From positions 62,702 to 126,701 of the forward strand of contig JAGQYY010000001.1 in the NCBI GenBank assembly GCA_020435825.1: DNA of 64,000 nt, written 5' to 3'. A model generated the notes under the pieces. That model worked only from the letters and a program-made list of their open reading frames with translations, ran no database searches and had not been told where the DNA came from. This DNA comes from Aequorivita sp. (GTDB lineage Bacteria > Bacteroidota > Bacteroidia > Flavobacteriales > Flavobacteriaceae). The translations under genes were made by a program, and so were the position numbers. This document shows positions 7,642 to 61,986 of the stretch, piece by piece; the first letter of the stretch is position 1, and the number at the start of each line of letters is the position of its first letter.

Positions 7642-7685
7642 ATGATTTTAGTCATTTTAAAACCCACAAAATCTGGATATATTTG
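7642..7685 (+). promoter_or_regulatory. Fnr-like operator plus -7 box for hpf-usp
   Basis: Perfect dyad ATGATTTTAGTCAT (7642-7655), then 22 bp, then a perfect Bacteroidota -7 box TATATTTG (7678-7685). The expected transcription start is a few bases downstream, placing the dyad near -41.5, the class II Crp/Fnr activator position. The hpf ATG is 26 bases after the box. Same geometry as 12 other sites in this window. Confidence 0.8.
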
Positions 7686-7710
7686 AGATGTATAAAAAAT
7701 TCCGAGAATC

Positions 7711-8010
7711 ATGACTATAAACATTCAATATGTGAAAATGCCCACCAGCGAGGCGATGAACGAATATGTTGAAAAAAGACTTCAAAAACTTGCTGAAAAG
7801 TATGATTGGCTTATTAGAGCCGATGTAAGTTTTAAGATGGAAAACAACGTTTACGGCAAAGGCAATATATGCGAGATGGAACTGAGCCTTCCGGGACCTA
7901 AAATTTTTGCAACATCAAAAGAGGCCACCTTTGAAGCGGCCGCAAAAGAAACTATTTCTGACCTTGAAAAACAGCTTAAAAAACGCAAGGCAAAATTCAT
8001 AACCCACTAA
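7711..8010 (+). CDS. hpf: Ribosome hibernation promoting factor (HPF/RaiA, short form)
   Basis: Short (99-residue) member of the ribosome-associated HPF/YfiA family that binds the 30S decoding region and silences ribosomes during energy limitation. The single S30AE domain spans the protein, with the typical start MTINIQYVKMPTSEAM and a lysine-rich C-terminal helix (LEKQLKKRKAKF). The long-form C-terminal dimerisation domain is absent. It is cotranscribed with the USP gene 12 bp downstream. The Fnr-like operator suggests induction at low oxygen. Confidence 0.88.
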   Translation: MTINIQYVKMPTSEAMNEYVEKRLQKLAEKYDWLIRADVSFKMENNVYGKGNICEMELSLPGPKIFATSKEATFEAAAKETISDLEKQLKKRKAKFITH

Positions 8011-8022
8011 AAACCAGTACAG

Positions 8023-8859
8023 ATGAAAAAAATATTAGTTCCCGTAGATTTTTCCGACCATTCAGATTATGCGCTGGAAGTAGCCGCAAACATTGCAAAA
8101 AAGCAAAATGCCGAAATCGTTGCGGTACATATGATGGGTCTAAACGATGCATTTATAACACGCGATGAAAGCAAGGAGACTATGGAAGCGATGTTTTATA
8201 TGAGGTTGGCAGAAAAGCGTTTTGCCGAATTCCTTGACAAAGATTACCTAAGAGATATTAAGGTTACCGATACAGTGCATAATTATAAAATTTTTAGTGA
8301 ATTGAATGAGGTAGCCCAAGATTTTGGAGCAGATTTGATAGTTATGGGTTCCCACGGAAGCTCAGGCTTAAAAGAGGTTTTCGTTGGAAGCAATACCGAA
8401 AAAGTAGTGCGTACTTCAGAAATACCAGTGTTGGTTATAAAGCACCGTCACGAAAATTTCAATCCAGAGCTTGGAGTTTTTGCTTGCGATTTTTTAGAGA
8501 ATTCCATTGGTCCCTACAAACGTGCCCAAAAAATGTTTGATGCCTTGGGGATTAACATGCAGATGCTCTACGTGAACCTTGCAGGTGATTTTAGAAGCAC
8601 TCGCGAAATTGAAAAACGAATCCTCAGCTTTTTGAAAAGCGTGGGGGAACCAAATCCACTTGAAAGTTTGAATAAAGTTATTCAATACAACGAATATTCT
8701 GTGGAGGCAGGAATTTTTGGTTACAGTCAAGTAAGCAATGCCGATATTATTGCACTGCCCACGCAAGGTCGCCAAGGCTTGGCGCACTTCTTCTCCGGAA
8801 GTATTGGTGAAGATGTGGTAAACCATTCAGATTTACCGGTAATGACTTTTAAAGTTTAG
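8023..8859 (+). CDS. Universal stress protein, two tandem UspA domains (USP1)
   Basis: 278-residue cytoplasmic protein made of two UspA domains. The first starts MKKILVPVDFSDHSDYAL and has the ATP-binding loop MGSHGSSGLKEVFVGSNTEK. The second keeps a similar loop (LPTQGRQGLAHFFSGSIGED), so both sites may bind nucleotide, unlike the USPs at 14490-19071, whose second loops are degraded. It shares a transcript with hpf, which points to a dormancy or energy-stress role. Confidence 0.9.
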   Translation: MKKILVPVDFSDHSDYALEVAANIAKKQNAEIVAVHMMGLNDAFITRDESKETMEAMFYMRLAEKRFAEFLDKDYLRDIKVTDTVHNYKIFSELNEVAQDFGADLIVMGSHGSSGLKEVFVGSNTEKVVRTSEIPVLVIKHRHENFNPELGVFACDFLENSIGPYKRAQKMFDALGINMQMLYVNLAGDFRSTREIEKRILSFLKSVGEPNPLESLNKVIQYNEYSVEAGIFGYSQVSNADIIALPTQGRQGLAHFFSGSIGEDVVNHSDLPVMTFKV

Positions 8860-8892
8860 TTAATTGCTATCGACATCAATTAACGGTGAAAG

Positions 8893-8927
8893 AGCAGAAA
8901 TTTCGTAGATGGATTTCTGCTTTTTTT
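8893..8927 (+). terminator. Rho-independent terminator after USP1
   Basis: Perfect stem AGCAGAAAT (8893-8901) / ATTTCTGCT (8913-8921) with an 11-base loop and seven Ts. It overlaps the stop of the convergent deoD gene by two bases. Confidence 0.85.
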
Positions 8928-12026: not shown

Positions 12027-12070
12027 TAAAACTAAATAGTTTTTGGATGAAATTTTATGATAAAAATCAG
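12027..12070 (-). promoter_or_regulatory. Fnr-like operator plus -7 box for the TerB-like gene
   Basis: On the reverse strand: CTGATTTTTATCAT (12070-12057), 22 bp, then TAGTTTTA (12034-12027), one mismatch to TAnnTTTG. The dyad sits between this gene and the divergent FixL-like kinase gene. In the forward direction the nearest -7-like box (TTACTTTTG, ending 12102) is two bases out of register, so kinase autoregulation is possible but less well supported. Confidence 0.6.
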
Positions 12071-12106
12071 TTCACAAAAACTGTTTAAAATCCTTACTTT
12101 TGGGGA

Positions 12107-13342
12107 ATGAAGGTTTTTGAGGAAAAAAGGGGAAATATTTTTAGGATTCTTTCTGAAGCTATATCGGAAGGCATTGTCATTGTTAATGAAAAGCAGGAAA
12201 TTGTTACTTCAAATGAAGCCGCCGATCGTATGTTTGGTTATAATGCCAAGGAGCTTTTGGGAGAAAACATAAACCTGCTGATTCCGAGAGAATATAGGCA
12301 CAGCCATACCGAGCAGGTTGAGGAATATTTGGAAAAAAGTGGTCCGCGCCAAATGGGCCACGGTCGCGATCTTTATGGCCAACGCAAGGACGGCAGCGTT
12401 TTTCCTGTGGAGGCAGGGTTAAATCCTTTTGAAATTTATGGGAGTAAATATGTAATGGCACTTGTTACGGATATTTCAGTCCGTAAAACCCAAGAAAAAG
12501 AAATTATAGAACTCAACTTGTATTTGGAGCAAAAAGTTGAAGCGCGCACCAAGGAGCTCAAACAAACAATCAATGAGCTAAAAGAAGAAGTTTCAAAACG
12601 TAAGGAAGCGGAGCACAAAATAATGGAATCGCTTCGAAAGGAACGGGAACTTAATGAATTGAAAACAAAATTTCTATCGCTGGTTTCCCATGAGTTTAAA
12701 ACTCCCTTAAGCGGTATTCTTACCTCAGCTATGCTTACTGGTAAATATACAGAGACGGAACAACAGGACAAGCGAGAAAAGCATTTGAAAACCATTCAAA
12801 GCAAAGTTAAATACCTGAATAATATTTTGAATGATTTCCTTTCCATTGAGCGTTTGGAGTCCGGTAAGGCCACTTATAAATTTGACACTTTTCCACTTAG
12901 CAAAATAGTGAATGAGGTAATTTATAATGCAAATATGCTGTTGAAAGAAGGCCAGCGCATAAATTATCCACAAAACATAGACGATATCTCTTTAAATTTT
13001 GACGAGAAAATACTTGAATTGTCGCTTACCAACCTTATTAACAACGCCATAAAATATTCCCCGGAACACACTATTATTGACGTGGTTGTGGTTCCAAGTA
13101 AGGATTTCCTTACCATAAAAATTATAGATGAAGGAATGGGCGTTCCGCAAAAGGAACAGAAATATATTTTTAACAGATATTTCCGTGCTGAAAACGCGCT
13201 ATTGGACCAAGGCACTGGCATTGGTCTCAATATCGTGAAAAGCCATTTGGAAAATCTAGGTGGTACAATTACCTTTGAAAGTAAAGAAGGCAAAGGCAGC
13301 ACGTTTATAATTTCTTTTCCTATAAAAAACAATACTGATTAA
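12107..13342 (+). CDS. Cytoplasmic PAS sensor histidine kinase, FixL-like
   Basis: 411-residue soluble kinase without membrane segments. One PAS domain (about 13-125) is followed by a coiled coil (130-185), HisKA with phosphoacceptor His195 in VSHEFKTPL, and a HATPase domain with an N box (LINNAIKYSP) and the G box GTGIGLNIV. The PAS resembles FixL: NLLIPREYRHSHTEQ matches the F-helix region with His67 at the heme ligand position. GHGRDLYGQRKDG places Arg87 exactly 20 residues later, as His200 and Arg220 do in Bradyrhizobium FixL. I infer a heme oxygen (or NO) sensor; FixL-related PAS domains without heme exist. It is followed 1 bp later by its partner regulator. Confidence 0.85.
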   Translation: MKVFEEKRGNIFRILSEAISEGIVIVNEKQEIVTSNEAADRMFGYNAKELLGENINLLIPREYRHSHTEQVEEYLEKSGPRQMGHGRDLYGQRKDGSVFPVEAGLNPFEIYGSKYVMALVTDISVRKTQEKEIIELNLYLEQKVEARTKELKQTINELKEEVSKRKEAEHKIMESLRKERELNELKTKFLSLVSHEFKTPLSGILTSAMLTGKYTETEQQDKREKHLKTIQSKVKYLNNILNDFLSIERLESGKATYKFDTFPLSKIVNEVIYNANMLLKEGQRINYPQNIDDISLNFDEKILELSLTNLINNAIKYSPEHTIIDVVVVPSKDFLTIKIIDEGMGVPQKEQKYIFNRYFRAENALLDQGTGIGLNIVKSHLENLGGTITFESKEGKGSTFIISFPIKNNTD

Positions 13343-13343
13343 G

Positions 13344-14396
13344 ATGAAGACAATACTTCTTATTGAAGACGATACCGCATTAAGAGAAAACACTGCTGAA
13401 CTTTTAGAGCTTTCAGGTTATATGGTTTTTACGGCACCAAACGGTAAAATTGGTATTGAAAAGGCGAGAAGTAAAAACCCAAATATCATAATTTGTGATA
13501 TAATGATGCCAGAAATTGACGGCTATGGCGTGCTTGAAAAAGTGGCTTCAGAAGAAGAAACAAAGCATATCCCTTTCATTTTTCTTTCAGCAAAAACGGA
13601 ACATAAAGAAATACGCAAAGGCATGGATATGGGGGCAGATGATTATTTGACCAAACCCTTTGACGAGCAGGAATTGCTGAGTGCCGTGGAGAGCCGTTTG
13701 GCCAAAGCGAACATTTTGGCTATGCGTGACAACAATAAAGAAGCGAAGGGCAGTGAAGGTGATGAAAATCCTCAAAACCTGAACCAGTTGAAAAACTTTT
13801 TTTGCGATGAAGGCGAAATAAATAACTATAAAAAAGGAGAAACAATTTATCGAAGGGGCGACCACTCCAACAGTATGTTTCTAATTTTAAAAGGTGTTGT
13901 GAAAACGCACACTATGGACGCTAATGCCAAAGAACTCATTACCGGTCTTTACAAAGCTGATGACTTTTTGGGCTTCACTTCTTTTGACGATAATATTCCT
14001 TATGATGAAACAGCCACGGCTGTAGAAGATATAGAACTTGTGGGCATTTCAAAAACCTATGTGAAGGATATTCTGAAAAAAAGCCAAGATGTTTCCTTGG
14101 AATTGATGAACCTTTTGTCTGACAACCTCTCTGAAATAAAGCAGCAATTGGTAAAAATGGCCTACAGTTCAGTTCGGAAAAAAACCGCCAGCACCATTCT
14201 TCAGTTTGTGGAGATTATGAATAAAAAACCTGAAGCGCCTCTTCGAATTTCACGAAATGACCTTGCCACAACCGCCGGAATTGCTACCGAAAGCCTTATA
14301 AGAACACTTTCAGACTTCAAGAAAGATGGCATCATAGAAATTGAAGGCCGCGACATTCGCATTATAGATTTGGAAAGCCTACGCGACATAGATTAA
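13344..14396 (+). CDS. Response regulator fused to Crp/Fnr-family transcription factor
   Basis: 350 residues. The receiver domain (1-120) has acidic pocket E8/D9, phosphoacceptor Asp52 (CDIMMPEIDG), Ser82 and Lys104 (LTKPF). A linker (125-145) leads to a cyclic-nucleotide-like beta-roll (150-235), a long dimer helix (240-275) and a winged HTH (about 290-345). The recognition helix ATESLIRTLSDF keeps Glu316 and Arg320, the E-x3-R pair that reads TGA in Crp and Fnr. Fnr's serine before that Arg is Ile319 here. Only two Cys (51, 154) are present, so no Fnr-type iron-sulfur cluster is expected, and the cAMP-pocket residues are not evident. Activation is therefore probably by phosphorylation from the adjacent kinase: FixJ plus FixK in one chain. 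Confidence 0.88.
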   Translation: MKTILLIEDDTALRENTAELLELSGYMVFTAPNGKIGIEKARSKNPNIIICDIMMPEIDGYGVLEKVASEEETKHIPFIFLSAKTEHKEIRKGMDMGADDYLTKPFDEQELLSAVESRLAKANILAMRDNNKEAKGSEGDENPQNLNQLKNFFCDEGEINNYKKGETIYRRGDHSNSMFLILKGVVKTHTMDANAKELITGLYKADDFLGFTSFDDNIPYDETATAVEDIELVGISKTYVKDILKKSQDVSLELMNLLSDNLSEIKQQLVKMAYSSVRKKTASTILQFVEIMNKKPEAPLRISRNDLATTAGIATESLIRTLSDFKKDGIIEIEGRDIRIIDLESLRDID

Positions 14397-14426: not shown

Positions 14427-14470
14427 CTGATTTTTATCATTTTCTAGCCCGATCAATAAAGATAGATTTG
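14427..14470 (+). promoter_or_regulatory. Fnr-like operator plus -7 box for USP2
   Basis: CTGATTTTTATCAT (14427-14440), 22 bp, perfect -7 box TAGATTTG (14463-14470). The dyad is identical to that of the TerB-like gene read on its own strand. The USP2 ATG is 20 bases after the box. Confidence 0.78.
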
Positions 14471-14489: not shown

Positions 14490-15326
14490 ATGAAGAATAT
14501 ATTGATTCCGACGGATTTTTCTGAAAATTCACGCAATGCCATTAAATATGCATTGGAATACTTTTCCGATGTTGCCGTGAATTTTTATATCCTTCATGTT
14601 TCAAATAAAAATCTTAATCTTATAGAAGAACCGGAAAATATTTCAGATTTCAGTTCTGAAATGCAAACAGTTCAAAGTACTTCCGTTTTATTGAAAGAAG
14701 AGATTAGGGTTTGTCAGCAGCTTTCTAAAAACCAAGCCCATGTATTCTTTCCGCTTCATGAAAACCTAAACTTGGTGGAGGCCATCAGAAATCAGGTGAA
14801 TGAAAAGGAAATTGATTATATTTTGATGGGTACTAGAGGAACTTCCAAAATAAACAGGAGTGAAATGGGAAGCAATACCTGTGATGTGATCACTAAGGTA
14901 AAATGTCCCATACTTGTTATTCCCGAACACGCAAAATTCAGCGGTATTAAAAACATAGCTTTTTTAACGGATTACAACTGCATCTATCGCAACAAGGTAA
15001 TCAGCGCACTTTCCGATACTCTGGATACGCATCAGTCACCACTTCGGGTGCTTCACATAAGGGCTCAAAATATGGGTCTAACTGCTTCACAAACAGATAA
15101 CAAAGGGTTTTTGCATTACTTTTTCAAGGAAAAAAAACACAGCTTCCATTTTGTGGAAAACAAAGACTTGGAAATTGGTATTCAGGATTTTGTAGAAACT
15201 TGGGAAATAAGCCTAGTTGCTGTTGTGGCCAAAAATTTGAATTTTATTCAAAGGTTGCTGTTGCGCCCTACGGTAAAATCTGTAAGTTATACGGCTGATG
15301 TGCCTTTTTTGGTACTCCATGAGTAA
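14490..15326 (+). CDS. Universal stress protein, two UspA domains (USP2)
   Basis: 278 residues, first of five consecutive USP genes. The N-terminal domain starts MKNILIPTDFSENSRNAI and carries the nucleotide loop MGTRGTSKINRSEMGSNTCD. The C-terminal half keeps the fold (starting IKNIAFLTDYN) but has lost the glycine-rich loop, so probably only one ATP site remains. It ends in the motif VPFLVLHE. It has its own Fnr-like promoter and follows the FixL-like/REC-Crp pair directly. Confidence 0.9.
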   Translation: MKNILIPTDFSENSRNAIKYALEYFSDVAVNFYILHVSNKNLNLIEEPENISDFSSEMQTVQSTSVLLKEEIRVCQQLSKNQAHVFFPLHENLNLVEAIRNQVNEKEIDYILMGTRGTSKINRSEMGSNTCDVITKVKCPILVIPEHAKFSGIKNIAFLTDYNCIYRNKVISALSDTLDTHQSPLRVLHIRAQNMGLTASQTDNKGFLHYFFKEKKHSFHFVENKDLEIGIQDFVETWEISLVAVVAKNLNFIQRLLLRPTVKSVSYTADVPFLVLHE

Positions 15327-15528: not shown

Positions 15529-15572
15529 CTGATATTTATCATATTATTTCCAACTGACAATTATTATATTTA
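15529..15572 (+). promoter_or_regulatory. Fnr-like operator plus -7 box for USP3-USP6
   Basis: CTGATATTTATCAT (15529-15542), 22 bp, TATATTTA (15565-15572), one mismatch to TAnnTTTG. It probably drives USP3 to USP6, whose gaps are short (11-43 bp), and perhaps the two genes beyond. Confidence 0.72.
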
Positions 15573-30804: not shown

Positions 30805-30848
30805 CAAAAATAATTCTTCAAAATAACTTCAAAAATGATTTTAATCAT
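30805..30848 (-). promoter_or_regulatory. Fnr-like operator plus -7 box for USP7
   Basis: Reverse strand: perfect dyad ATGATTAAAATCAT (30848-30835), 22 bp, then -7 box TATTTTTG (30812-30805). The USP7 ATG is 24 bases beyond the box. Confidence 0.78.
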
Positions 30849-30940: not shown

Positions 30941-30984
30941 ATGATAAAAGTCATATTCTATTTCCAACTTGAAACCTAATTTTG
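30941..30984 (+). promoter_or_regulatory. Fnr-like operator plus -7 box for the nos cluster
   Basis: Dyad ATGATAAAAGTCAT (30941-30954), 22 bp, perfect -7 box TAATTTTG (30977-30984). It precedes the cytochrome c gene by 25 bases. It is separate from the USP7 site on the other strand, about 100 bp away. Confidence 0.82.
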
Positions 30985-39447: not shown

Positions 39448-39491
39448 ATGATTTTTGTCATACTATGAGAATTCTGGATTTCTCAACTTTA
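39448..39491 (+). promoter_or_regulatory. Fnr-like operator plus weak -7 box for the flavoprotein-like gene
   Basis: Perfect dyad ATGATTTTTGTCAT (39448-39461), then 22 bp to CAACTTTA (39484-39491), which keeps only part of TAnnTTTG. The weak box in the usual register suggests strict dependence on the activator. Confidence 0.68.
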
Positions 39492-41367: not shown

Positions 41368-41411
41368 ATGACAATGGTCATATTCCGCAACTACTTCATT
41401 TCCTTACTTTG
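41368..41411 (+). promoter_or_regulatory. Fnr-like operator plus -7 box for norCB
   Basis: ATGACAATGGTCAT (41368-41381), 22 bp, TTACTTTG (41404-41411), one mismatch to TAnnTTTG. norC starts 49 bases after the box. Confidence 0.78.
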
Positions 41412-41906: not shown

Positions 41907-41921
41907 CCAACAACTATAATC

Positions 41922-43271: not shown

Positions 43272-43280
43272 TAAAATAAA

Positions 43281-43370
43281 GGCCTGAAGCTGGTTACGCT
43301 CTTATACCTGAAAATCTGGGAATTTTTTATTTTAAGTCCGTTCCCAAAAAGAACTAAGCTTCGGGTCTTT
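43281..43370 (+). terminator. Nested stem-loop in the norB-norQ gap
   Basis: Outer arms GGCCTGAAGCT (43281-43291) and AGCTTCGGGTC (43357-43367) pair with two imperfect positions. Inner arms TGGGAA (43317-43322) and TTCCCA (43341-43346) pair perfectly. TTT and A-rich DNA follow. It may partly terminate norCB transcription or process the message. The gap is 150 bp, longer than elsewhere in the cluster. Confidence 0.5.
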
Positions 43371-43421
43371 AAAAAACTTTGACTGTCATATTTCAGCACA
43401 GTTGAAACGACAATTAAATTT

Positions 43422-44249
43422 ATGATTATGCCAACTTCAGAAACAATCAGCATAAATGAAAACCCGAAAATTATTTCGGAACAGCCTTTTTATAAGCCTA
43501 TGGCCCACGAAGTTGAAATTTTTCAACATGCCTTTAAGAATAAACTCCCCATATTGTTGAAAGGTCCAACGGGCACTGGAAAGACTCGTTTTGTTGATTT
43601 CATGGCGCATAAAATGGGGCAATCGCTCATAACGGTTTCCTGTCACGAGGAAACTTCTTCAACAGACCTTATCGGGCGCTATATAATCAAAGGTGCAGAA
43701 ACCATTTGGGTAGACGGTCCTTTGACCAAAGCTGTAAAAGAAGGAGCAATTTTATATTTAGATGAAATTGCCGAAGCACGTCCCGATGTAGTTGTTGCAG
43801 TACATTCACTCACAGACCACAGAAAGGAACTCTACATAGACAAACTCGGTATTACCATAAAAGCGCATCCTGATTTTATGCTTGTGGCCTCTTTTAACCC
43901 GGGTTACCAAAAAGGGTTTAAAGAATTGAAACCCTCCACTCGTCAACGTTTTGTAGCGATTTCGTTTCAATACCCAATTGTAAAGGACGAGACTGAAATA
44001 GTAGCTACTGAAACTGGCCTAGACAAAGACACCTCAAAAAAATTGGTAAATATTGCCAACAAGATCCGCAATCTGACCGAATTGGGACTTACAGAAACAG
44101 TATCAACTCGTTTGTTGGTTGATGCCGCACTACTCATAAACAGCGGTCTTCCGAAGCGACTTTCTGTGAAAGTTGCAGTTGTGGAACCATTGACCGATGA
44201 TCTTGAAATTACACAAGCACTAACAGATTTGTGCGATTTGATGATTTAA
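43422..44249 (+). CDS. norQ: NorQ, MoxR-like AAA+ ATPase
   Basis: 275 residues: Walker A KGPTGTGKTRFVD, Walker B ILYLDEIAEARP, sensor region VASFNPGYQKGFKELKPSTRQRF. With NorD it inserts the FeB iron into NorB. Start ATG 43422 or the ATG two codons later are both possible. Confidence 0.93.
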   Translation: MIMPTSETISINENPKIISEQPFYKPMAHEVEIFQHAFKNKLPILLKGPTGTGKTRFVDFMAHKMGQSLITVSCHEETSSTDLIGRYIIKGAETIWVDGPLTKAVKEGAILYLDEIAEARPDVVVAVHSLTDHRKELYIDKLGITIKAHPDFMLVASFNPGYQKGFKELKPSTRQRFVAISFQYPIVKDETEIVATETGLDKDTSKKLVNIANKIRNLTELGLTETVSTRLLVDAALLINSGLPKRLSVKVAVVEPLTDDLEITQALTDLCDLMI

Positions 44250-44258
44250 GCCAAAGCC

Positions 44259-46028: not shown

Positions 46029-46029
46029 T

Positions 46030-46614
46030 ATGGCCGATACTGCAAAAATTGATTACAAAAACATTTTTTACCCACCGGGCGGAATCCTGCTATGGATCAT
46101 CATTTACTTGGAACTGCTAACCTTTGGAATTGCCTTGGTTTTTATGGCATTAAACGCAAGAACGGAACCCGAGGTCTTCCACGAATCGCGTATGTTGCTC
46201 AATACGGCGTATGGCGCTATCAACACGGTTTTCTTGCTCAGTAGTGGTTGGTGCATGGCACAGTCGGTACATTTTTTGAAAACTGAAAATTTTGGCAAAA
46301 GCAAATTATTTTTAAAGCTAACCTTGCTGGGCGGTATCCTTTTTTTGGCGCTGAAAAGCGTAGAGTATTACGATAAAGTGGAAGCTGGGCTTACCGTGGG
46401 CTACAATGTTTTTTTCGGGTATTATTGGACGCTCACGCTTTTCCACGTAATCCACGTAATTGTTGGAATTGTAATTTTATTGGTTTTGGGAAGAACTCTC
46501 AGCAAAAAACCCGAAACCTTAAAAGTGGAAGATTACGAATCGGGCGCTGCGTTTTGGCATATGTGCGATTTGATCTGGCTGCTGCTTTTCCCGATAATCT
46601 ATTTACTTTTTTAA
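46030..46614 (+). CDS. norE: NorE-like cytochrome c oxidase subunit III family protein
   Basis: 194 residues with five predicted helices and the subunit III hallmarks (GYYWTLTLFHVIHVIVGI and the late ESGAAFWHMCDLIWLLLFPI). NorE helps NOR activity or stability but is not catalytic. Four bases separate it from norF. Confidence 0.88.
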   Translation: MADTAKIDYKNIFYPPGGILLWIIIYLELLTFGIALVFMALNARTEPEVFHESRMLLNTAYGAINTVFLLSSGWCMAQSVHFLKTENFGKSKLFLKLTLLGGILFLALKSVEYYDKVEAGLTVGYNVFFGYYWTLTLFHVIHVIVGIVILLVLGRTLSKKPETLKVEDYESGAAFWHMCDLIWLLLFPIIYLLF

Positions 46615-46617: not shown

Positions 46618-46851
46618 ATGGAACGCACTTTCAATGCCACTTGGCTCGTTTTAATAGTACTCACAATCATTTCCGCAGTTTTTGCGAACTTGGATTTTGC
46701 CTACGCAGCACTAATTATTTTGGGATTGTCCTTTCTGAAATTTATAGGCGTAGCGTTTTTCTTTATGGAACTGAAAAGGGCGAATGTGTTTTGGAGGGTG
46801 CTATTGGTGGCTTTTGTGGTGCTGTTGCTTACTGTGGTTTGGGCGGTTTAA
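46618..46851 (+). CDS. norF: NorF-like small membrane protein (COX4-like)
   Basis: 77 residues with three hydrophobic stretches and the subunit-IV-like motif KFIGVAFFFMELKRANVFWR. Found after norE in many NOR clusters. Its last four bases overlap the convergent acyl-CoA synthetase gene. Confidence 0.8.
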   Translation: MERTFNATWLVLIVLTIISAVFANLDFAYAALIILGLSFLKFIGVAFFFMELKRANVFWRVLLVAFVVLLLTVVWAV

Positions 46852-48908
46852 AGTTTTTTCAATCGCACCCGTGCATCCACCGCAACAATATTTTTTTGCG
46901 TGCCAATCAACGGATTGATGTCCATCTCCGTGATTTCCGGGGCGGCCTCCACCAAAGCGGAAAGCCGTTGGATTATTTCAACAAACTGGTTTTCGTCAAC
47001 GCCCTTTTGGCCCCGCGCACCCTGAATGAGTTTATACCCGCGAAGCGATTGGACCATTTGCTGGGCTTCGTTTTTTGAGATAGGGCTTAAACCTGCCGAA
47101 ACATCGTTTAGCACTTCGATAAAAATCCCGCCCAAACCGCACAGAATGGTATGGTTGAAACCGGGCTCCTTCATTACGCCCACAAACAGTTCCAGTCCTG
47201 CCAGTTGGGGCTGCACCATCACCGCTGTTGCGGAATCTATTTGCATTAGCCTATCAAAGGTTTCCGAAACTTCTTCCTTTGAAGTGATATTTAGCACCAC
47301 GCCCTTTGCGTCGCTTTTGTGGAGTGGCCCCACGACCTTCATCACCACCGGAAATTTAAGAGAATCTATTGCTGTGAGCAGTTTTTCCTTTGAATTTTCC
47401 ACCAGTTCCGTAACTCGCGGAATTCTCGCCGCATCCAACAGCTTCTCCGTTTGTTCCGCATCCAAATAACCCTCGGTGACCATATCGATAACGCTTCGTA
47501 TTTTTTTTACGTCAATTTTAGGAAGTGAAATTTCTTCTGAAATAGGCTCTGGGGTTTTAAAAACCTGCGAAAGTGCTTTTCCCAAAACCACTTCATCCGG
47601 GAAGTTGATATGGCCTTTCTTCAAAAATGATTGAATCTCACGTTGTGCGTTTACCACGGAAGGCAGCACAGGAAAAATGGGCTTGTTGCAGATTTCGAGT
47701 TTCACGCTCAAAACATTGTAGACATTTTCTACATCAAAAAGTCCAGGACTGCCGAAAACAACGGCCATTGCATCTATGTTGTCAAATTTGTGTTCGCAGT
47801 AATCGATGATGATGCCCAATTGTTCAGCAGTGCCAGTAGCCAAAAAATCGATGGGGTTGGCTACGGACGACCCGGGGTACAGGAATGTTTTCAATTTTTC
47901 GGCATCGAGCCCGGATATTTCGGGAACTTTTAGGCCGCCTTTTGAAAGCTCATCGGCCAGCATCACTGCCGAACCTCCGGCGTGCGTAATAATGGCAATA
48001 TTCTTCCCTTCCAGTTTTCTGTAGTTAAAAATGGAGGCCACGCTCAGCAGTTCCTCGCGGCTGCTGCAATACACAATCCCCGCTTTGTTGAACAGTGCGC
48101 GCACCGTCATATCGCTACTAGCTATTGCACCCGTATGTGAAGTTGCGGCACGACTGCCTTCAGCGGTACTTCCAGCCTTGATGGCCGCTATTTTTGCGCC
48201 TTTTTTTATGAGTGAAGAAGCGTGCTTCAGCAATTTTTGCGGATTGGAAATGGTTTCGAGGTAAAGCAATTTTACCAACGGATCTTTTTCGGCGTTGAAG
48301 TTTTCGTCCATATATTCCAAAATATCCTCAACGCCTGTTTGGGCTGCGTTCCCCACGGAAAATACGTTTGCAAAGGAAACGCCCAAAGCCATACCAGCTT
48401 CCATAATAAAGACTGCCGTGGCACCCGAGCCCGAGATGAGGTCGCATCCCTTTGGGTTGAACTGCGGCACGGGCGCGGTAAAAACGCCTTTGTAACTCTC
48501 CGTAATTGCGCCAATACAGTTTGGACCAATCAAGCAACCGTTCACTGAATTTATGCTGGTGATTATTTCCTGTTCCCATTGTTTTCCCTGTTCGCCAGCT
48601 TCGCCAAAACCTGCGGAAATTATTATAAAGGCTTTGGTGTTTTTTTCTTCGGCTAAATTTTTTATGGTTTCGGGACAATATTTTGCGGGAATGGCAATAA
48701 TGGCAAGATCAGTTTGAGGTATATCCTTTACTTCAGCAAAGCTAGTTATGCCCTGCACTTTTTTTTCTTTCGGATTCACCGCGTAAATGATTCCTGAAAA
48801 TCCTCCGGCAAGAATATTTTTCAGCATATTGCCACCGGGTTTCCCAGTGTCGTTGGAAGCCCCGATGATCGTAATAGTTTTGGGGTTGAGAAGTTCTTGG
48901 TTCACCAT
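46848..48908 (-). CDS. ADP-forming acyl-CoA synthetase (acetate-CoA ligase type), fused alpha-beta
   Basis: 686 residues from the ATG at 48908; a TTG four codons upstream is less likely. N-terminal CoA-binding Rossmann domain (TIIGASNDTGKPGGNM), ligase domain with phosphohistidine loop ATSHTGAIASSD, and C-terminal ATP-grasp domain (FPVVMKVVGPLHKSDAKGV). It converts acyl-CoA, ADP and phosphate to acid, CoA and ATP. The protein-acetyltransferase (Pat) GNAT domain is absent. It shares a divergent operator with the NorB-like operon, which suggests ATP generation at low oxygen. Confidence 0.88.
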   Translation of the reverse strand: MVNQELLNPKTITIIGASNDTGKPGGNMLKNILAGGFSGIIYAVNPKEKKVQGITSFAEVKDIPQTDLAIIAIPAKYCPETIKNLAEEKNTKAFIIISAGFGEAGEQGKQWEQEIITSINSVNGCLIGPNCIGAITESYKGVFTAPVPQFNPKGCDLISGSGATAVFIMEAGMALGVSFANVFSVGNAAQTGVEDILEYMDENFNAEKDPLVKLLYLETISNPQKLLKHASSLIKKGAKIAAIKAGSTAEGSRAATSHTGAIASSDMTVRALFNKAGIVYCSSREELLSVASIFNYRKLEGKNIAIITHAGGSAVMLADELSKGGLKVPEISGLDAEKLKTFLYPGSSVANPIDFLATGTAEQLGIIIDYCEHKFDNIDAMAVVFGSPGLFDVENVYNVLSVKLEICNKPIFPVLPSVVNAQREIQSFLKKGHINFPDEVVLGKALSQVFKTPEPISEEISLPKIDVKKIRSVIDMVTEGYLDAEQTEKLLDAARIPRVTELVENSKEKLLTAIDSLKFPVVMKVVGPLHKSDAKGVVLNITSKEEVSETFDRLMQIDSATAVMVQPQLAGLELFVGVMKEPGFNHTILCGLGGIFIEVLNDVSAGLSPISKNEAQQMVQSLRGYKLIQGARGQKGVDENQFVEIIQRLSALVEAAPEITEMDINPLIGTQKNIVAVDARVRLKKL

Positions 48909-48966
48909 GGTTTGTTGCAATCGTATCCTATTGAAAGGAATAAAAATTTTATAAAAAATGCCTTGG

Positions 48967-49040
48967 CGAAATTAAAAGATGTTCATATCCTAAAAACTGA
49001 CAATTGTCATATTTCGCACTGAAGTGAAAAGGTATTTTTA
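48967..49040. promoter_or_regulatory. Bidirectional Fnr-like operator: NorB-like operon (+) and acyl-CoA synthetase (-)
   Basis: The dyad CTGACAATTGTCAT (48997-49010) contains the 12-bp perfect palindrome TGACAATTGTCA. Forward, 22 bp later, lies TATTTTTA (49033-49040). Reverse, at the same 22 bp, lies TAATTTCG (48974-48967). Both boxes differ from TAnnTTTG by one base. One site can therefore serve two promoters. Confidence 0.7.
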
Positions 49041-53308: not shown

Positions 53309-53914
53309 ATGAAAACCTTATTAGAAAACTCGGTGAAAAAAGCCATGGATTATTCCGAATACAACTTGCTTTTCAAACAATTAGTAGAAGTGGGCAGGAC
53401 CACTGGCGAACAAACCCAGGAGAAGATTGATTATACCAAGCTAAACTTCAGCCGTACCAAGCGATTGGACAAAACCGCTAATATTTCTGAAGAGAGTATT
53501 GAAGTTTTCAAGAACATTTCTGAAAAACAAACTTGGCTTGTAATCAGCGAACCTTGGTGTGGCGATGCTGCACAAACGCTTCCATTCCTAAACAAGATTG
53601 CGCAGCTTTCGGAAAATATCGATTTGAAGATTGTGCTTCGCGATGAAACCCCGGAATTAATGGATCGATTTTTGACAAAAGGTTCGCGCTCCATTCCTTT
53701 GGTTGTTATACTTGATGCTTCATTCAAGGTTATTAATACTTTTGGTCCCCGCTCCAAAGCTGCCACGAAATTGGTGAGTGATTACAAAGCCCATCACGGA
53801 AAAATTGATGAAGCTTTTAGGGAAATGCTGCAAGTATGGTATAATAATGACAAGGGGGTTTCAATTGTCAATGATATTTCTACTTTGGTTGTCCCTTTTA
53901 AGGAAGCTTTGTGA
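53309..53914 (+). CDS. Thioredoxin-like family protein
   Basis: 201 residues from ATG 53309. Thioredoxin fold with motif EPWCGDAAQTLP, in which the second Cys of CxxC is replaced by Ala, so it is not a disulfide reductase of the usual kind; later cis-Pro in SRSIPLVVILD. Family members are common in Bacteroidota and poorly characterised. It follows nadB by 10 bp. Confidence 0.82.
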   Translation: MKTLLENSVKKAMDYSEYNLLFKQLVEVGRTTGEQTQEKIDYTKLNFSRTKRLDKTANISEESIEVFKNISEKQTWLVISEPWCGDAAQTLPFLNKIAQLSENIDLKIVLRDETPELMDRFLTKGSRSIPLVVILDASFKVINTFGPRSKAATKLVSDYKAHHGKIDEAFREMLQVWYNNDKGVSIVNDISTLVVPFKEAL

Positions 53915-53954
53915 CAATTATCATTTACGGTAAAGTATATTTTTTACAACTTTG
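53911..53954 (+). promoter_or_regulatory. Fnr-like operator plus -7 box for the CoA-transferase
   Basis: GTGACAATTATCAT (53911-53924), 22 bp, CAACTTTG (53947-53954). The TTTG is in register. The CoA-transferase ATG at 53970 is 16 bases later. The site overlaps the stop codon of the preceding thioredoxin-like gene. Confidence 0.75.
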
Positions 53955-53969
53955 CACAAAAATAAAATT

Positions 53970-55235
53970 ATGCAAATCGTATCAGCCCAAGAGGCCGTAT
54001 CCATAGTAAAATCCAATAATCGCATATTTTTTCAGGGCGCCGCAATGACGCCCAATTTATTGATAGACACTTTGTGTGAACGCTATCGCGAACTGAAGAA
54101 TGTTGAAATTATCCAAATCCACACCCATGGTGAGGCCAAATACACCCAAGCGCCATACACAGAAGCATTTAAACTTTCAAGTTGTTTTGTAGGCGATAAT
54201 GTTAGGAAAGGCGTAAATACGATTCACGGGGATTATATTCCGGTTTTTTTAAGTGAAATCCATTGGCTTTTCAGAAGAAATATTCTGCCTTTGGATGTGG
54301 CTTTCATTCAAGTTTCGCCTCCTGATAAGCATGGTTATTGCTCGCTGGGTGTTTCTGTTGATGTTACCTTGCCCGCAATTCAAACAGCCAAAAAAGTTGT
54401 CGCTCAAATAAACCCCCAGGTTCCCAGAACGCACGGCGATGGAATTATTCACATAAAAAATATAGATTTTGCAGTTGAAATAGAAGAACCTATCCATGCT
54501 TCTAAATTAGGAACGCCAACTGAAGTTGAAGCTACCATTGGCAAGCACGTTGCTGGTTTGGTTGAGGATGGTGCTACGTTGCAAATGGGCATCGGCAATA
54601 TTCCAAATGCCGTGCTTCATAATTTGGGCAACCATAAACGATTGGGAATACACACAGAAATGTTCAGTGATGGAATACTTCCTTTGGTAGAAAAGGGAAT
54701 TATAACAGGCGAAGACAAAGAAATTAAAACAGGAAAAATAGTTACCTGTTTCGCGATGGGCACTAAGAAATTATACGATTTTATTGATGATAACCCAACT
54801 GTGCATTTTAAAGAAGCCGGTTATACAAATGACACAGCCATCATTAGAAAAAACCCCAGGGTTACCGCAATTAACAGCGCGATTGAGATTGATTTAACAG
54901 GACAGGTTTGTGCGGACAGTATTGGGATGTACCAATATTCCGGAGTGGGCGGGCAGATGGATTTTATCCGTGGCGCCTCACTTTCAGAAGGAGGGAAGCC
55001 CATTATTGCGATGCCTTCGGTAACCAATAAAGGTGTTTCCAAAATCACACCGTTTTTGAAAGAAGGGGCCAGTGTTACCACAACCAGGGCGCACGTTCAT
55101 TATGTGGTTACGGAATATGGCGTGGTGAATCTCTTTGGAAAAGGATTGGAGCAACGTGCCAAAGCGCTAATATCCATTGCGCATCCCGATCATCGGGAGG
55201 CATTGGAGAAGGCAGCAAAAAAACGGTTTCACTAA
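53970..55235 (+). CDS. Acetyl-CoA hydrolase / 4-hydroxybutyrate CoA-transferase family
   Basis: 421 residues from ATG 53970; a TTG at 53952 lies inside the promoter box and is rejected. Two CoA-transferase domains, with LQMGIGNIPNAVL and HTEMFSDGILPLVEKG near the catalytic Glu, and the later GVGGQMDFIRGA. It transfers CoA between acids such as acetate and other acyl groups. With the ADP-forming acyl-CoA synthetase it could produce ATP and acid from acyl-CoA when respiration is limited. Confidence 0.9.
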   Translation: MQIVSAQEAVSIVKSNNRIFFQGAAMTPNLLIDTLCERYRELKNVEIIQIHTHGEAKYTQAPYTEAFKLSSCFVGDNVRKGVNTIHGDYIPVFLSEIHWLFRRNILPLDVAFIQVSPPDKHGYCSLGVSVDVTLPAIQTAKKVVAQINPQVPRTHGDGIIHIKNIDFAVEIEEPIHASKLGTPTEVEATIGKHVAGLVEDGATLQMGIGNIPNAVLHNLGNHKRLGIHTEMFSDGILPLVEKGIITGEDKEIKTGKIVTCFAMGTKKLYDFIDDNPTVHFKEAGYTNDTAIIRKNPRVTAINSAIEIDLTGQVCADSIGMYQYSGVGGQMDFIRGASLSEGGKPIIAMPSVTNKGVSKITPFLKEGASVTTTRAHVHYVVTEYGVVNLFGKGLEQRAKALISIAHPDHREALEKAAKKRFH

Positions 55236-57015: not shown

Positions 57016-57059
57016 ATGATTTAAGTCATATTTTGCCCCTTTTTTTATACTGAAATTTG
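57016..57059 (+). promoter_or_regulatory. Fnr-like operator plus -7 box for the RIC gene
   Basis: Perfect dyad ATGATTTAAGTCAT (57016-57029), 22 bp, GAAATTTG (57052-57059). The RIC ATG at 57091 is 31 bases later. Confidence 0.78.
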
Positions 57060-57090: not shown

Positions 57091-57816
57091 ATGACAACAC
57101 TTCAAGAACGTACCGTAGCTGATGTGGTTACGGAAAATATAAAAGCAGCCCATATTTTCAAAAAGCACGGAATAGACTTTTGCTGTGGTGGAGGCATTAG
57201 CATTGCCCGTGCCTGCGAAAAAGCTAACATAGATCCTTCAATTATAGAGGCAGAGCTTTTGAACCTGGATAGCATTCAGGACCGTGCTCACGACTACAAC
57301 AGTTGGAAGCTAGACTTTTTGACAGATCATATTATAAATGTTCACCATCATTATGTAGAGGAGAGCAGCCCTCTTTTACTACAATATTCCAAACGTGTGA
57401 ACCATGTTCATGGCCACCACTATACTGAACTTGCCGAAATTGAAGCTTTGGTAACACAAGTTGTTCAAGCTATGGCGGCACACCAAAAAAAGGAAGAACT
57501 GATACTATTCCCTTTCATTAAAAAACTTGTAATTGCCGAACGCGAAAACAGCGAAGTACCTCCAATCCATTTTGGCACTGTGGAAAACCCAATAAAAATG
57601 ATGGAAGAGGAGCATGAGGAAGCCGGTGAGATTTTGCGTAAGATTTCAAAATTAAGCAACAACTATACACCACCACAAGGCGCTTGCAACACTTATCGCG
57701 CATTTTACGCAAAGCTTGATGAGTTTGAGCAGGATTTGCACCAGCACATACACTTGGAAAACAATATTCTTTTTCCAAAAGCTTTGAACTTGGAAAAGAA
57801 ACTTAAAAAAGCTTAA
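57091..57816 (+). CDS. ric: Iron-sulfur cluster repair protein RIC (YtfE/ScdA)
   Basis: 241 residues. The N-terminal ScdA domain has the Cys pair in IDFCCGGG (residues 29-36), and a hemerythrin-like diiron domain has His/Glu ligands in LTDHIINVHHHYVEE, MAAHQKKEELILFP, EEEHEEAGEIL and HIHLENNILFP. Repairs Fe-S and diiron centres damaged by NO. The Fnr-like operator and the neighbourhood fit NO stress during denitrification. Confidence 0.94.
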   Translation: MTTLQERTVADVVTENIKAAHIFKKHGIDFCCGGGISIARACEKANIDPSIIEAELLNLDSIQDRAHDYNSWKLDFLTDHIINVHHHYVEESSPLLLQYSKRVNHVHGHHYTELAEIEALVTQVVQAMAAHQKKEELILFPFIKKLVIAERENSEVPPIHFGTVENPIKMMEEEHEEAGEILRKISKLSNNYTPPQGACNTYRAFYAKLDEFEQDLHQHIHLENNILFPKALNLEKKLKKA

Positions 57817-57931: not shown

Positions 57932-57942
57932 AATTTTACGTC

Positions 57943-59439: not shown

Positions 59440-59461
59440 AATATCGTGGTAAATAGCTTTA

Positions 59462-59505
59462 GTGATATTTGTCATTTTTTGAACAGCTTATATTACTAAA
59501 CTTTG
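59462..59505 (+). promoter_or_regulatory. Fnr-like operator plus -7 box for ccoI
   Basis: GTGATATTTGTCAT (59462-59475), 22 bp, AAACTTTG (59498-59505); TTTG in exact register. The ccoI ATG is 30 bases after the box. Confidence 0.75.
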
Positions 59506-59534
59506 TGTCAGTATAACGAGCAAATTTAAGATTG

Positions 59535-61940
59535 ATGGTAAACTGTTTCCATTGCGGTGATCCGTGTTTGGACATTGAAATTAAGCATGGGGAAAAATCC
59601 TTTTGTTGCCATGGCTGCAAAACGGTTTTTGATATTCTGAATGACAACGACTTAAATTATTATTACGATCTTGAGAAAACACCGGGCATTTCACCAAAGG
59701 AAATTGCTGGTAAATATGACTTTCTCGACAATGAAGCCATTGTTGAAAAATTGCTTGAATTTAACGATGGAAGCACACAAATTGTCTCTTTTTTAATTCC
59801 TTCAATACATTGCAGTAGTTGTATTTGGATTCTCGAAAACCTCAATAAACTTAATCCTTCTGTAAAATCTTCACAAGTAAATTTTCCAGAGAAAACAGTT
59901 CGAATCACTTTTTCAGCGGAAGAAAATTCACTTAAAAATCTTGTTGTTCTTTTAAGCCGAATAGGTTACGAACCCTATATTTCACTAGATGATTCTGCGA
60001 AAAAAGAAAAAAACATAAACCGAAGCCTAATATATAAATTGGGTATTGCAGGTTTTGCTTTTGGAAATGTGATGTTCCTTTCGTTTCCTGAATATTTTGA
60101 GCATTCCGAATTTTGGTTGGACCAATTCAAACCTTTTTTCCGGTGGTTGATGTTTGCATATTCACTTCCGGTTGTTTTTTATTCAGGAAGTGGGTATTTT
60201 ATTTCAGCATACAAAGGACTTCGTTCAAAAATATTAAATATTGATGTTCCCATTGCTTTGGGAATTGCGGTACTTTTTATTAGAAGCACAATGGATATTG
60301 TGATGAATTGGGGCACGGGCTTTTTCGACAGTCTTACTGGGCTGGTTTTCTTTTTATTGCTTGGGAAATTTTTTCAGCAAAAAACCTACAGCTATCTATC
60401 CTTTGAACGTGATTACAAATCATACTTTCCTATTGCTGTAACGCGCCTTTTCAAAAATTCCGAAGGAAAAACCATTGAAGAACAAGCTGAAGTTTACAAC
60501 GTAAAAAAAGGGGATCGTTTGCTAATTCGCAATAACGAAATAATTCCAGTGGATGCCATTTTAATAAAAGGAAATGCGCTGATAGATTACAGTTTTGTTA
60601 CTGGTGAAGCAGAGCCAATTTCCAAGCAAAGTGGTGATAAACTCTTTGCTGGCGGCAAACAACAAGCTGGAATTTTGGAAGTGGAAGTACTGAAACCCGT
60701 TGCACAGAGCTACTTAACGCAGCTTTGGAGCAACGATGTTTTCAGTAAGGACAAAACAGGAATTTTTGAATCCCTGACAGACAGTATAAGCAAGCGATTT
60801 ACGGTTGCTATTCTTTCCGTGGCTTTTATTTCTACCATATTTTGGTTGCTGGTTGATCCCTCAAAAGCGTTTAATGTATTTACTTCGGTCTTGATTGTTG
60901 CCTGTCCGTGTGCCATTGCACTAGCTGCACCGTTCACTTTGGGCAATTTGCTCAGAATCTTTGGAAGGGAGAAACTGTATTTGAAGGAAGCTTCGGTGAT
61001 TGAACAAATGGCAAAGTTGGATACCGTGGTTTTTGACAAAACCGGAACGCTTACCACAAATCAAAAAAGCCTGATTGCATACGAAGGCGTTGCGCTTTCA
61101 GAGGTTGAAAAACAGTTGCTTACAAGCACCCTTCGGGCATCGAGCCATCCTCTTAGCCGCTCGCTTTACAATATTCTCGAAAAAAATAATATCCAAACCC
61201 TGGATGAGTTTGAAGAAGAAGTAGGGAAGGGGATTTCCGCTACTTCCAAAAACAATTCCATAAAAGTAGGTTCCTATGATTTTGTGGGCTATGGTGGTGA
61301 ATTGATTTCAGAAATAAAAAACAAAACCACCATCCACATCAGCGCCAATCAAGTTTACAAGGGTTGTTACATTTTTAATAGCGAATACCGAAAAGGTGTT
61401 GCTGAAATTTTTGGACAGCTTAGTGACGGGAAAGAGATAATCGTACTTTCCGGCGACAACGAAGGCGAACGCAAACGTTTAGAAGCAATACTGCCAAAAG
61501 GCACTAAACTTTATTTTAACCAAAAACCGGACGATAAGCTTAACTTCATAAAAACACTCCAGCAAAGTGGAAAGCAAGTATTGATGGTAGGCGATGGCCT
61601 TAATGACGCCGGAGCTTTAAAGCAAAGTAATGTTGGTTTTGTAATTTCAGAAAATACAAATGTGTTTTCACCGGCATGTGATGGTATTTTGGATGCTTCC
61701 CGGTTTAACAAAATCGGCGATTTTTTAAACCTTTCAATAAAAGGAGTGAAGATTATTAAATGGGCGTTTTTGTTTTCTTTAATTTATAATTTAATAGGCT
61801 TGTCGTTTGCCGTCACAGGGCATTTGCAGCCTGTAGTTGCGGCAATATTAATGCCTTTGAGCTCAATAAGCATTGTTGTTTTCACAACAGTCATGAGCCA
61901 ATTTGCGGGAAAGAAATTAAGAACGGATATAAATAAGTAA
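59535..61940 (+). CDS. ccoI: Cu(I)-translocating P-type ATPase, CcoI/FixI type
   Basis: 801 residues. N-terminal Cys-rich extension (CFHCGDPC, FCCHGCKTVF), HMA-like domain with CSSC (SIHCSSCIWILENL), eight helices with the CPC metal site in ACPCAIALAAP, phosphorylation motif DKTGTLTTN and hinge GDGLNDAGAL. Supplies copper for assembly of cbb3 oxidase. Start ATG 59535 rather than the adjacent TTG 59532. Followed by ccoS and ccoNO, each close by. Confidence 0.95.
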   Translation: MVNCFHCGDPCLDIEIKHGEKSFCCHGCKTVFDILNDNDLNYYYDLEKTPGISPKEIAGKYDFLDNEAIVEKLLEFNDGSTQIVSFLIPSIHCSSCIWILENLNKLNPSVKSSQVNFPEKTVRITFSAEENSLKNLVVLLSRIGYEPYISLDDSAKKEKNINRSLIYKLGIAGFAFGNVMFLSFPEYFEHSEFWLDQFKPFFRWLMFAYSLPVVFYSGSGYFISAYKGLRSKILNIDVPIALGIAVLFIRSTMDIVMNWGTGFFDSLTGLVFFLLLGKFFQQKTYSYLSFERDYKSYFPIAVTRLFKNSEGKTIEEQAEVYNVKKGDRLLIRNNEIIPVDAILIKGNALIDYSFVTGEAEPISKQSGDKLFAGGKQQAGILEVEVLKPVAQSYLTQLWSNDVFSKDKTGIFESLTDSISKRFTVAILSVAFISTIFWLLVDPSKAFNVFTSVLIVACPCAIALAAPFTLGNLLRIFGREKLYLKEASVIEQMAKLDTVVFDKTGTLTTNQKSLIAYEGVALSEVEKQLLTSTLRASSHPLSRSLYNILEKNNIQTLDEFEEEVGKGISATSKNNSIKVGSYDFVGYGGELISEIKNKTTIHISANQVYKGCYIFNSEYRKGVAEIFGQLSDGKEIIVLSGDNEGERKRLEAILPKGTKLYFNQKPDDKLNFIKTLQQSGKQVLMVGDGLNDAGALKQSNVGFVISENTNVFSPACDGILDASRFNKIGDFLNLSIKGVKIIKWAFLFSLIYNLIGLSFAVTGHLQPVVAAILMPLSSISIVVFTTVMSQFAGKKLRTDINK

Positions 61941-61942
61941 AA

Positions 61943-61986
61943 TTGACAAATGTCATATTTTAATGATATTTGCAATAATAATTTTG
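61943..61986 (+). promoter_or_regulatory. Fnr-like operator plus -7 box for ccoS-ccoNO
   Basis: TTGACAAATGTCAT (61943-61956), 22 bp, perfect -7 box TAATTTTG (61979-61986). The ccoS ATG is 17 bases later. The site begins two bases after the ccoI stop. Confidence 0.8.

What the first reader, a model, noticed from the sequence alone, without database searches (positions are those of the whole stretch)
7642..61986. Thirteen promoters share one 44-bp operator-promoter module with fixed 22-bp spacing
The dyad nTGAY-N4-RTCAn is followed after exactly 22 bp by a TAnnTTTG-like -7 box at 7642, 12070(-), 14427, 15529, 30848(-), 30941, 39448, 41368, 48997, 53911, 57016, 59462 and 61943. Seven left halves are ATGAY and 12 right halves end TCAT. 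Perfect -7 boxes occur at 7678, 14463, 30977, 30812(-) and 61979; the others keep most of the box in the same register. Constant spacing places the dyad near -41.5, the class II Crp/Fnr position. The genes are hpf-usp, TerB-like, all USP groups, nos, nor, the NorB-like operon, CoA-transferase, RIC, ccoI and ccoS-ccoNO. Dyad and spacing are read directly; the regulator is inferred.
Basis: partly seen in the sequence, partly recalled or inferred. Interest (0 to 1): 0.9.

Follow-up and report, generated by a model that had tools for sequence, protein, structure and literature searches.

The report
One oxygen-switch promoter, two readers
Thirteen genes or gene groups in this bacterium are preceded by copies of one 44-base DNA switch with a fixed layout that recurs across its bacterial family, and the switch is predicted to turn on genes for breathing at low oxygen and with nitrogen oxides, likely through a DNA-binding protein encoded among them that would be controlled by a neighbouring heme-based sensor.

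Summary
All 13 sites have TGAYN4RTCA, then T, then 22 bp, then a TAnnTTTG-like box. In Flavobacterium psychrophilum this box is reported at -12 to -5, so the dyad would centre at -41.5, the class II Crp/Fnr position. The strict module occurs in 250 of 299 Flavobacteriaceae genomes.

An operon among the modules encodes a kinase with a FixL/DosP-like heme-PAS domain and a receiver domain fused to Crp/Fnr (REC-Crp). Of genomes with REC-Crp, a stand-alone FNR-like protein, or both, 235 of 238 carry modules; with neither, 46 of 61 have none. The window's genus has REC-Crp and no such FNR. In 58 of 64 flavobacterial loci a module follows the REC-Crp gene. Both regulators share a similar recognition helix.

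Best reading: one class II module for hypoxia and nitrogen oxides, read by FNR, by a heme-kinase-driven REC-Crp, or by both. DNA binding, phosphorylation and signal are inferred; outside the family the link fails.

The parts
7642..7685 (+). module before hpf-usp (7711-8859); box TATATTTG 6/6
   Evidence: genes
   Evidence: gene
12107..13342 (+). histidine kinase with a PAS domain closest to DosP and FixL heme-PAS; predicted sensor
   Evidence: Pfam; solved structures
13344..14396 (+). REC-Crp: receiver + cNMP_binding + HTH_Crp_2; predicted reader of the module
   Evidence: Pfam; linkage and co-occurrence
14427..14470 (+). module just after the REC-Crp gene, before usp 14490-15326; box TAGATTTG 6/6
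   Evidence: same place in relatives
15529..15572 (+). module before the usp group starting at 15601; box TATATTTA 5/6
   Evidence: genes
30805..30848 (-). module before usp 29954-30781(-); box TATTTTTG 6/6
   Evidence: gene
30941..30984 (+). module before the cytochrome c-fasciclin-nosZ group (30982 onward; the ORF listing's TTG start lies inside the box, so the true start is probably further on); box TAATTTTG 6/6
   Evidence: genes
39448..39491 (+). module before a 601-aa gene of no family (39520-41325); box CAACTTTA 4/6
   Evidence: gene
41368..41411 (+). module before cytochrome c, COX1-family (NorCB-like), NorQ-like and COX3-family genes (41460-46614); box TTACTTTG 5/6
   Evidence: genes
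48997..49040 (+). module before a second cytochrome c + COX1-family operon (49024 onward; the listed GTG start lies inside the module, so the true start is probably further on); box TATTTTTA 5/6
   Evidence: genes
53911..53954 (+). module before a CoA-transferase gene (ORF listed as 53952-55235 from TTG); box CAACTTTG 5/6
   Evidence: gene
57016..57059 (+). module before the iron-sulfur repair gene RIC (57091-57816); box GAAATTTG 5/6
   Evidence: gene
59462..59505 (+). module before the ccoI-like P-type ATPase gene (59532-61940); box AAACTTTG 5/6
   Evidence: gene

Best explanation
Thirteen promoters of the window share one 44-bp module (TGAYN4RTCA, T, 22 bp, TAnnTTTG-like box) whose dyad would lie at -41.5, the class II Crp/Fnr position, and which is likely read here by the REC-Crp protein encoded among them, predicted to be switched on by the adjacent heme-PAS kinase. 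Shown: the module, its fixed spacing, its spread through Flavobacteriaceae, the domain make-up of the two proteins, and the linkage and co-occurrence of REC-Crp with the module. Inferred: at low oxygen (perhaps also with NO) the kinase would phosphorylate the receiver domain; the Crp part would bind TGAYN4RTCA as a dimer and contact RNA polymerase to start cbb3 oxidase, N2O and NO reduction, heme synthesis, ribosome hibernation and universal stress genes. In many relatives a stand-alone FNR-like protein with conserved cysteines and a similar recognition helix would read the same module, alone or together with REC-Crp; the three genomes of the window's genus have only REC-Crp.
For: Fixed 22-bp gap in window and genome. 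Published box position puts the dyad at -41.5. Kinase PAS matches DosP (E 5e-20) and FixL (4e-17), with the DosP heme His aligned to H67 and its Arg97 to R87 (residue roles recalled). REC-Crp keeps Asp52 in 42 of 42 rows. In 299 genomes module means are 10.5 (both regulators, 82 genomes), 7.3 (REC-Crp only, 57), 4.6 (FNR only, 99), 0.7 (neither, 61); zeros 0, 0, 3 and 46. In 9 same-genus pairs with and without a regulator, 8 have more modules with it and 1 ties, P 0.008. Own genus: REC-Crp yes, FNR no. In 58 of 64 flavobacterial loci a module follows the REC-Crp stop codon, 53 of them within about 60 bp. Recognition helices ATESLIR and TATESAIR; Glu and Arg invariant in 42 and 49 rows, Ile in 41 and 49. 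Other genome sites precede hemN, pfkA and others.
Against: No experiment. Counts are not corrected for descent beyond genus pairs; in the 6 pairs that isolate REC-Crp with FNR in both, 5 rise and 1 falls, P 0.22. Many genomes with neither regulator are small or incomplete; of the 14 that are at least 2.5 Mb and 90% complete (my count), 7 have no module and 7 have 1-4. Exceptions: G205 has neither and 4 modules at 99% completeness; G026, G128 and G234 have FNR and none. Outside the family REC-Crp does not predict the module: 1 of 16 loci, and many REC-Crp genomes have none. L022 and L023 of the own genome also have Glu and Arg at the same places, so the helix alone does not single out REC-Crp. 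R87 is kept in 40 of 60 flavobacterial and 3 of 15 other kinases. Curated FixL and Fnr models are matched far below their cut-offs.
Confidence: 0.72

Rival explanations
1. The module is a class II Crp/Fnr site, but in this organism another Crp/Fnr protein reads it, most plausibly the L022 type, and REC-Crp is a neighbour with another job.
For: L022 is in the own genome with a Glu-x-x-Ile-Arg helix like that of the FNR-like protein. Five genomes with neither REC-Crp nor FNR but with an L022 type (G051, G086, G138, G148, G277) have 1-3 modules each.
Against: An L022 type does not raise module counts: with REC-Crp mean 7.9 (31 genomes) against 9.6 without it (108); without REC-Crp 3.6 (16) against 3.0 (144) (12 of the 59 matches were left out as REC-Crp-like or fragmentary). 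The module adjoins REC-Crp in 58 of 64 loci.
Confidence: 0.15
2. The reader is a stand-alone FNR that was missed because the draft genome is 87% complete.
For: FNR and modules co-occur across the family, and FNR-only genomes show the ccoI and ccoNO modules.
Against: Two same-genus genomes at 99% and 100% completeness also lack a match at E 1e-40. 57 genomes with REC-Crp and no such FNR average 7.3 modules, none has zero.
Confidence: 0.05
3. The bound protein represses: the dyad next to the -33 region blocks RNA polymerase when oxygen is present.
For: The effect on transcription is untested, and a protein bound at -47 to -36 could also block polymerase.
Against: Exact spacing to the box and the absence of a conserved TTTG near -33 fit an activator that helps polymerase; targets such as cco and hemN are FixK/FnrN-activated elsewhere (PMC4999443 passages), and F. 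psychrophilum raises cbb3 oxidase under oxygen limitation (PMC9723704 passage).
Confidence: 0.06
4. Chance matches in AT-rich intergenic DNA.
For: Single letters of the box are common in AT-rich DNA.
Against: Shuffles, Markov simulations, reversed-pattern controls and the gap scan.
Confidence: 0.01

Closest known systems
FNR/CRP class II promoter activation (E. coli; recalled)
   Same: Crp/Fnr-type dyad predicted at -41.5; similar half-site; low-oxygen genes
   Different: Outer base A/C and T instead of TTGAT...ATCAA; the sigma box is the Bacteroidota TAnnTTTG; the proposed reader carries a receiver domain
FixL-FixJ-FixK and FnrN of Alphaproteobacteria (PMC4999443, passages)
   Same: Heme-PAS kinase (by similarity), a Crp/Fnr regulator, shared targets cco, hemN, nos; two related readers with one motif (TTGANCNNGATCAANG there)
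   Different: Here the receiver and the Crp part are one protein; curated FixL model not reached
HcpR2 of Bacteroides (PMC1274295, passages)
   Same: Crp/Fnr-family regulator in the same phylum, nitrogen-oxide theme
   Different: Motif GTAACN4GTTAC, Pro at CRP position 181, regulon in most Bacteroides only hcp
DosS/DosT-DosR dormancy regulon of mycobacteria (recalled, not tested)
   Same: Heme sensor kinases, many universal stress proteins and a ribosome-hibernation protein in one hypoxia regulon
   Different: DosR has a LuxR-type DNA-binding domain and another motif

Membership tests
Class II Crp/Fnr-dependent promoter | Two-fold symmetric site with TGA...TCA half-sites | tested here: met
   13 of 13 sites
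Class II Crp/Fnr-dependent promoter | Site centred near -41.5 from a mapped start | tested here: inconclusive
   -41.5 follows from the published box position in another species; no start mapped here
Class II Crp/Fnr-dependent promoter | Transcription depends on the bound protein | not testable with these tools
   needs mutants or in vitro transcription
FNR (oxygen-labile Fe-S regulator) | REC-Crp passes the curated Fnr model | tested here: not met
   NF008365 65.8 bits, cut-off 228
FNR (oxygen-labile Fe-S regulator) | Four cluster cysteines in the stand-alone FNR-like protein | tested here: inconclusive
   Six cysteines invariant in 49 rows; in the alignment to A. fischeri-type FNR chains two N-terminal and one central cysteine match, the third N-terminal one does not; some divergent members lack one or more of the six
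FixL heme-PAS oxygen-sensor kinase | Heme-PAS domain with the axial His | tested here: met
   By sequence only: DosP and FixL best PAS matches, His at H67, kept in 55 of 60 flavobacterial and 15 of 15 other kinases
FixL heme-PAS oxygen-sensor kinase | Passes the curated rhizobial FixL model | tested here: not met
   NF041777 97 bits, cut-off 850
FixL heme-PAS oxygen-sensor kinase | Binds heme and loses kinase activity with O2 | not testable with these tools
   needs protein
FixJ response regulator | Receiver domain with a LuxR-type DNA-binding domain | tested here: not met
   Receiver is present, but the output is cNMP_binding + HTH_Crp_2
CRP (cAMP receptor) | Passes the curated CRP model; Arg that binds cAMP | tested here: not met
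   NF008732 70.9 bits, cut-off 266; by eye the position of CRP Arg82 is Glu in 40 and Asp in 2 of 42 rows (role recalled)

The most novel reading that the evidence does not exclude
Flavobacteriaceae wire hypoxia and nitrogen-oxide genes to one rigid class II module and plug two different oxygen inputs into it: an iron-sulfur FNR-like protein, or a FixL-type heme kinase driving a receiver-Crp fusion, which amounts to FixJ and FixK merged into one polypeptide. The window's genus has gone over wholly to the fusion, so the promoters kept their layout while the sensor chemistry behind them was exchanged.
Probability: 0.55. Interest if true: 0.76.

Novelty: new variant of a known kind. Interest (0 to 1): 0.63.

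Why it matters
How flavobacteria, common in sea and soil (recalled), sense low oxygen is little known. One metatranscriptome study took the Crp/Fnr proteins of a Flavobacteriales, an Ignavibacteria and a Saprospiraceae genome for MalR-like carbon sensors and reported no evidence of denitrification control by this family in those organisms (PMC8510549, passages). The module would predict such regulons base by base in hundreds of genomes. It also offers a natural experiment: the same promoter layout under two kinds of sensor protein, so that regulator replacement and class II activation by a phosphorylated Crp protein become directly testable.

Tried and rejected
Chance or composition: rejected. 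A first genome pattern with the gap one base short (22 counted from the 12-bp core) gave 0 hits in either orientation; counted from the 14-bp dyad the gap is right. L021 type (SRVVVSR helix) as reader: rejected, since G073 has two proteins of this look and no module; L023 type (ESLSR): rejected, since G039 has one and no module. Self-activation of the kinase/REC-Crp operon through the 12070 dyad: not supported; toward the kinase a perfect box TACTTTTG lies at a gap of 24, not 22, and is not kept in G027. Use of the module beside REC-Crp outside Flavobacteriaceae: 1 of 16 loci, and REC-Crp there does not predict modules. Structure prediction was not run. Paper searches found no title or abstract that describes this module, a FixL-like kinase in flavobacteria or a receiver-Crp regulator; three gave no paper for all terms, 71 none, and only 15 of 166 were listed. 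PMC1183210, listed, was not opened. PMC12531629 was searched for six words with no occurrence. The library is open-access only, so this is no proof of absence from print.
Full report
THE OBSERVATION. TGAYN4RTCA occurs 15 times in the window against a shuffled mean of 3.3 and maximum of 8. Five boxes are perfect, seven have 5 of 6 letters, one (39448) has 4. The two other dyads (906, 62660) have no box. Corrections: ATGAY is in 6 of 13 left halves, TCAT in 13 of 13 right halves, and the 601-aa gene after 39448 matches no Pfam or NCBIfam model.

THE GENOME. The window lies in a draft genome of 2.65 Mb, 87% complete; close relatives of its REC-Crp are named Aequorivita. With the gap free from 9 to 38 bp, the strict pattern has 11 matches, 9 with exactly 22 bp. 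These six precede hemN, 6-phosphofructokinase, a proline dehydrogenase, an alginate-export-like porin, an FAD oxidoreductase and a 113-aa protein without family.

POSITION. In F. psychrophilum the sigma-A box TAnnTTTG is reported at -12 to -5 (PMC9723704; found passages, outline with abstract and the first part of one section seen). The dyad core then covers -47 to -36 and is centred at -41.5. A logo of 391 distinct modules from the window and 104 fetched loci, chosen by dyad and a box of 5 or more and not filtered for coding sequence, shows features that were not selected: T at -35 in 95%, A at -50 in 63%, A as commonest base at +1 (49%), and a T-rich stretch without conserved TTTG near -33. 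T at -35 is not mirrored on the far side (A 41%, C 43%), so the module has a direction. In 28 pairs of same-genus promoters (12 groups, taken from the dyad listing by order and direction, with the box in view, so not blind) TTTG is 100% and TA 96% identical, the spacer and the upstream flank 65%. That table leaves out 39448 and 41368, and the G027 partner of the 12070 site although one search lists a fitting dyad.

THE FAMILY. The strict module occurs in 250 of 299 Flavobacteriaceae genomes, 1771 times in all; the reversed control has 17 matches by my count of that listing. In a phylum sample it is in 102 of 374 genomes: all 41 of the own family, 7 of 8 of the second family of the order, and 54 of 325 others, mostly with 1 to 6, but two genomes of another class have 24 and 25.

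THE REGULATOR. The operon 12107-14396 lies between the modules at 12070 and 14427. Its first gene is a histidine kinase whose PAS domain is closest to DosP and FixL among solved structures (E 5e-20 and 4e-17); the heme His of DosP aligns with H67 and its Arg97 with R87 (roles recalled). Its second gene has receiver, cNMP_binding and HTH_Crp_2 domains. The own genome has four HTH_Crp_2 matches: REC-Crp, L021, L022 and, below the cut-off, L023.

CO-OCCURRENCE. REC-Crp (E 1e-30) is in 139 of 299 genomes. Nine module-rich genomes without it that I inspected each have a stand-alone Crp/Fnr protein with N-terminal CxxC; one was compared with solved structures, where an uncharacterised Crp/Fnr chain is first (1e-29) and FNR chains next (2e-19). 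Its kind (E 1e-40) is in 181 of 299. Module counts: both regulators, 82 genomes, mean 10.5, no zero; REC-Crp only, 57, mean 7.3, no zero; FNR only, 99, mean 4.6, 3 zeros; neither, 61, mean 0.7, 46 zeros. In same-genus pairs that contrast neither with some regulator, 8 of 9 have more modules with the regulator and one ties (P 0.008); REC-Crp added where FNR is in both raises the count in 5 of 6 (P 0.22); two further pairs differ in FNR under constant REC-Crp, one each way. The three own-genus genomes have REC-Crp and no such FNR. Recognition helices are ATESLIR (42 rows) and TATESAIR (49 rows); Glu and Arg are invariant in both, Ile in 41 and 49; rows are not free of repeats, and divergent FNR-like members were not in this set. 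A published rule links lack of Arg at CRP position 180 with absence of G at site position 3, and Glu at 181 with A at position 6 (PMC1274295, passages); by eye REC-Crp fits, but so do L022 and L023.

LINKAGE. The first 64 are flavobacterial by title, except one titled only Bacteroidetes bacterium. In 58 of 64 a strict dyad with a box of 5 or more follows the REC-Crp stop codon, 53 of them within about 60 bp and all within 320 bp; 62 of 64 have the dyad. Of the other 16 (Hymenobacter, Larkinella, Chitinophagaceae and others) 3 have a dyad and 1 dyad and box. A kinase of the same kind lies upstream in 60 of 63 and 15 of 15 loci with enough sequence; H67 is kept in 55 of 60 and 15 of 15, R87 in 40 of 60 and 3 of 15. 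In 10 FNR loci (9 from genomes without REC-Crp) modules precede ccoNO in 10 and ccoI in 9, and fnr is divergent from ccoI in 10.

MECHANISM. Most likely: the heme-PAS kinase responds to low oxygen, perhaps to NO, and phosphorylates the receiver domain (Asp52 in 42 of 42 rows); the Crp part, which by eye has Glu or Asp where CRP has its cAMP-binding Arg (role recalled), binds as a dimer and activates from -41.5. The genes (cbb3 oxidase and its ATPase, N2O and NO reductases, iron-sulfur repair, hemN, ribosome hibernation, universal stress proteins) fit hypoxia with nitrogen oxides. Every step after the sequence is inferred. Where fnr stands under the module next to REC-Crp, the layout recalls FixLJ acting on fixK (PMC4999443, passages).

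AGAINST AND LIMITS. Outside the family REC-Crp goes without the module, so its operator there must differ or the link is a family trait. Exceptions inside the family and the size of genomes with neither regulator are listed under evidence against. L022 remains a possible second reader. Descent is corrected only by genus pairs. Transcription starts were not mapped.

Noticed in passing
48967-49010 (-): The 48997 dyad has a box TAATTTCG (5/6) in register on its other strand too, pointing at the divergent acyl-CoA synthetase-like gene 46848-48920(-); the same box is in G254 and G027, where the spacer is conserved as well. A candidate fourteenth promoter on one shared operator.
   Followed up: partly
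12095-12102 (+): A perfect box TACTTTTG lies just before the kinase ATG (12107), at a gap of 24 from the 12070 dyad; present in G254, not in G027. If used, the message would be leaderless.
   Followed up: partly
39520-41325 (+): 601-aa protein with no Pfam or NCBIfam match, under a module, between the nos and nor groups.
   Followed up: no
genomes G558 and G591 (another class of the phylum): 24 and 25 strict modules, an FNR-like protein (E about 1e-52) and no REC-Crp match: the module with FNR has a second centre outside the Flavobacteriales.
   Followed up: partly
L022:1474-2061 (-) and 2315-2839 (+): A Crp/Fnr protein divergent from a small ORF that looks like a truncated globin (recalled, not searched); the type is in about 47 of 299 genomes and does not track the module.
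   Followed up: partly
L238-L252 and L254-L265: REC-Crp of Cytophagales, Chitinophagaceae and others with the same kind of kinase but mostly without the module; its operator there is unknown.
   Followed up: partly
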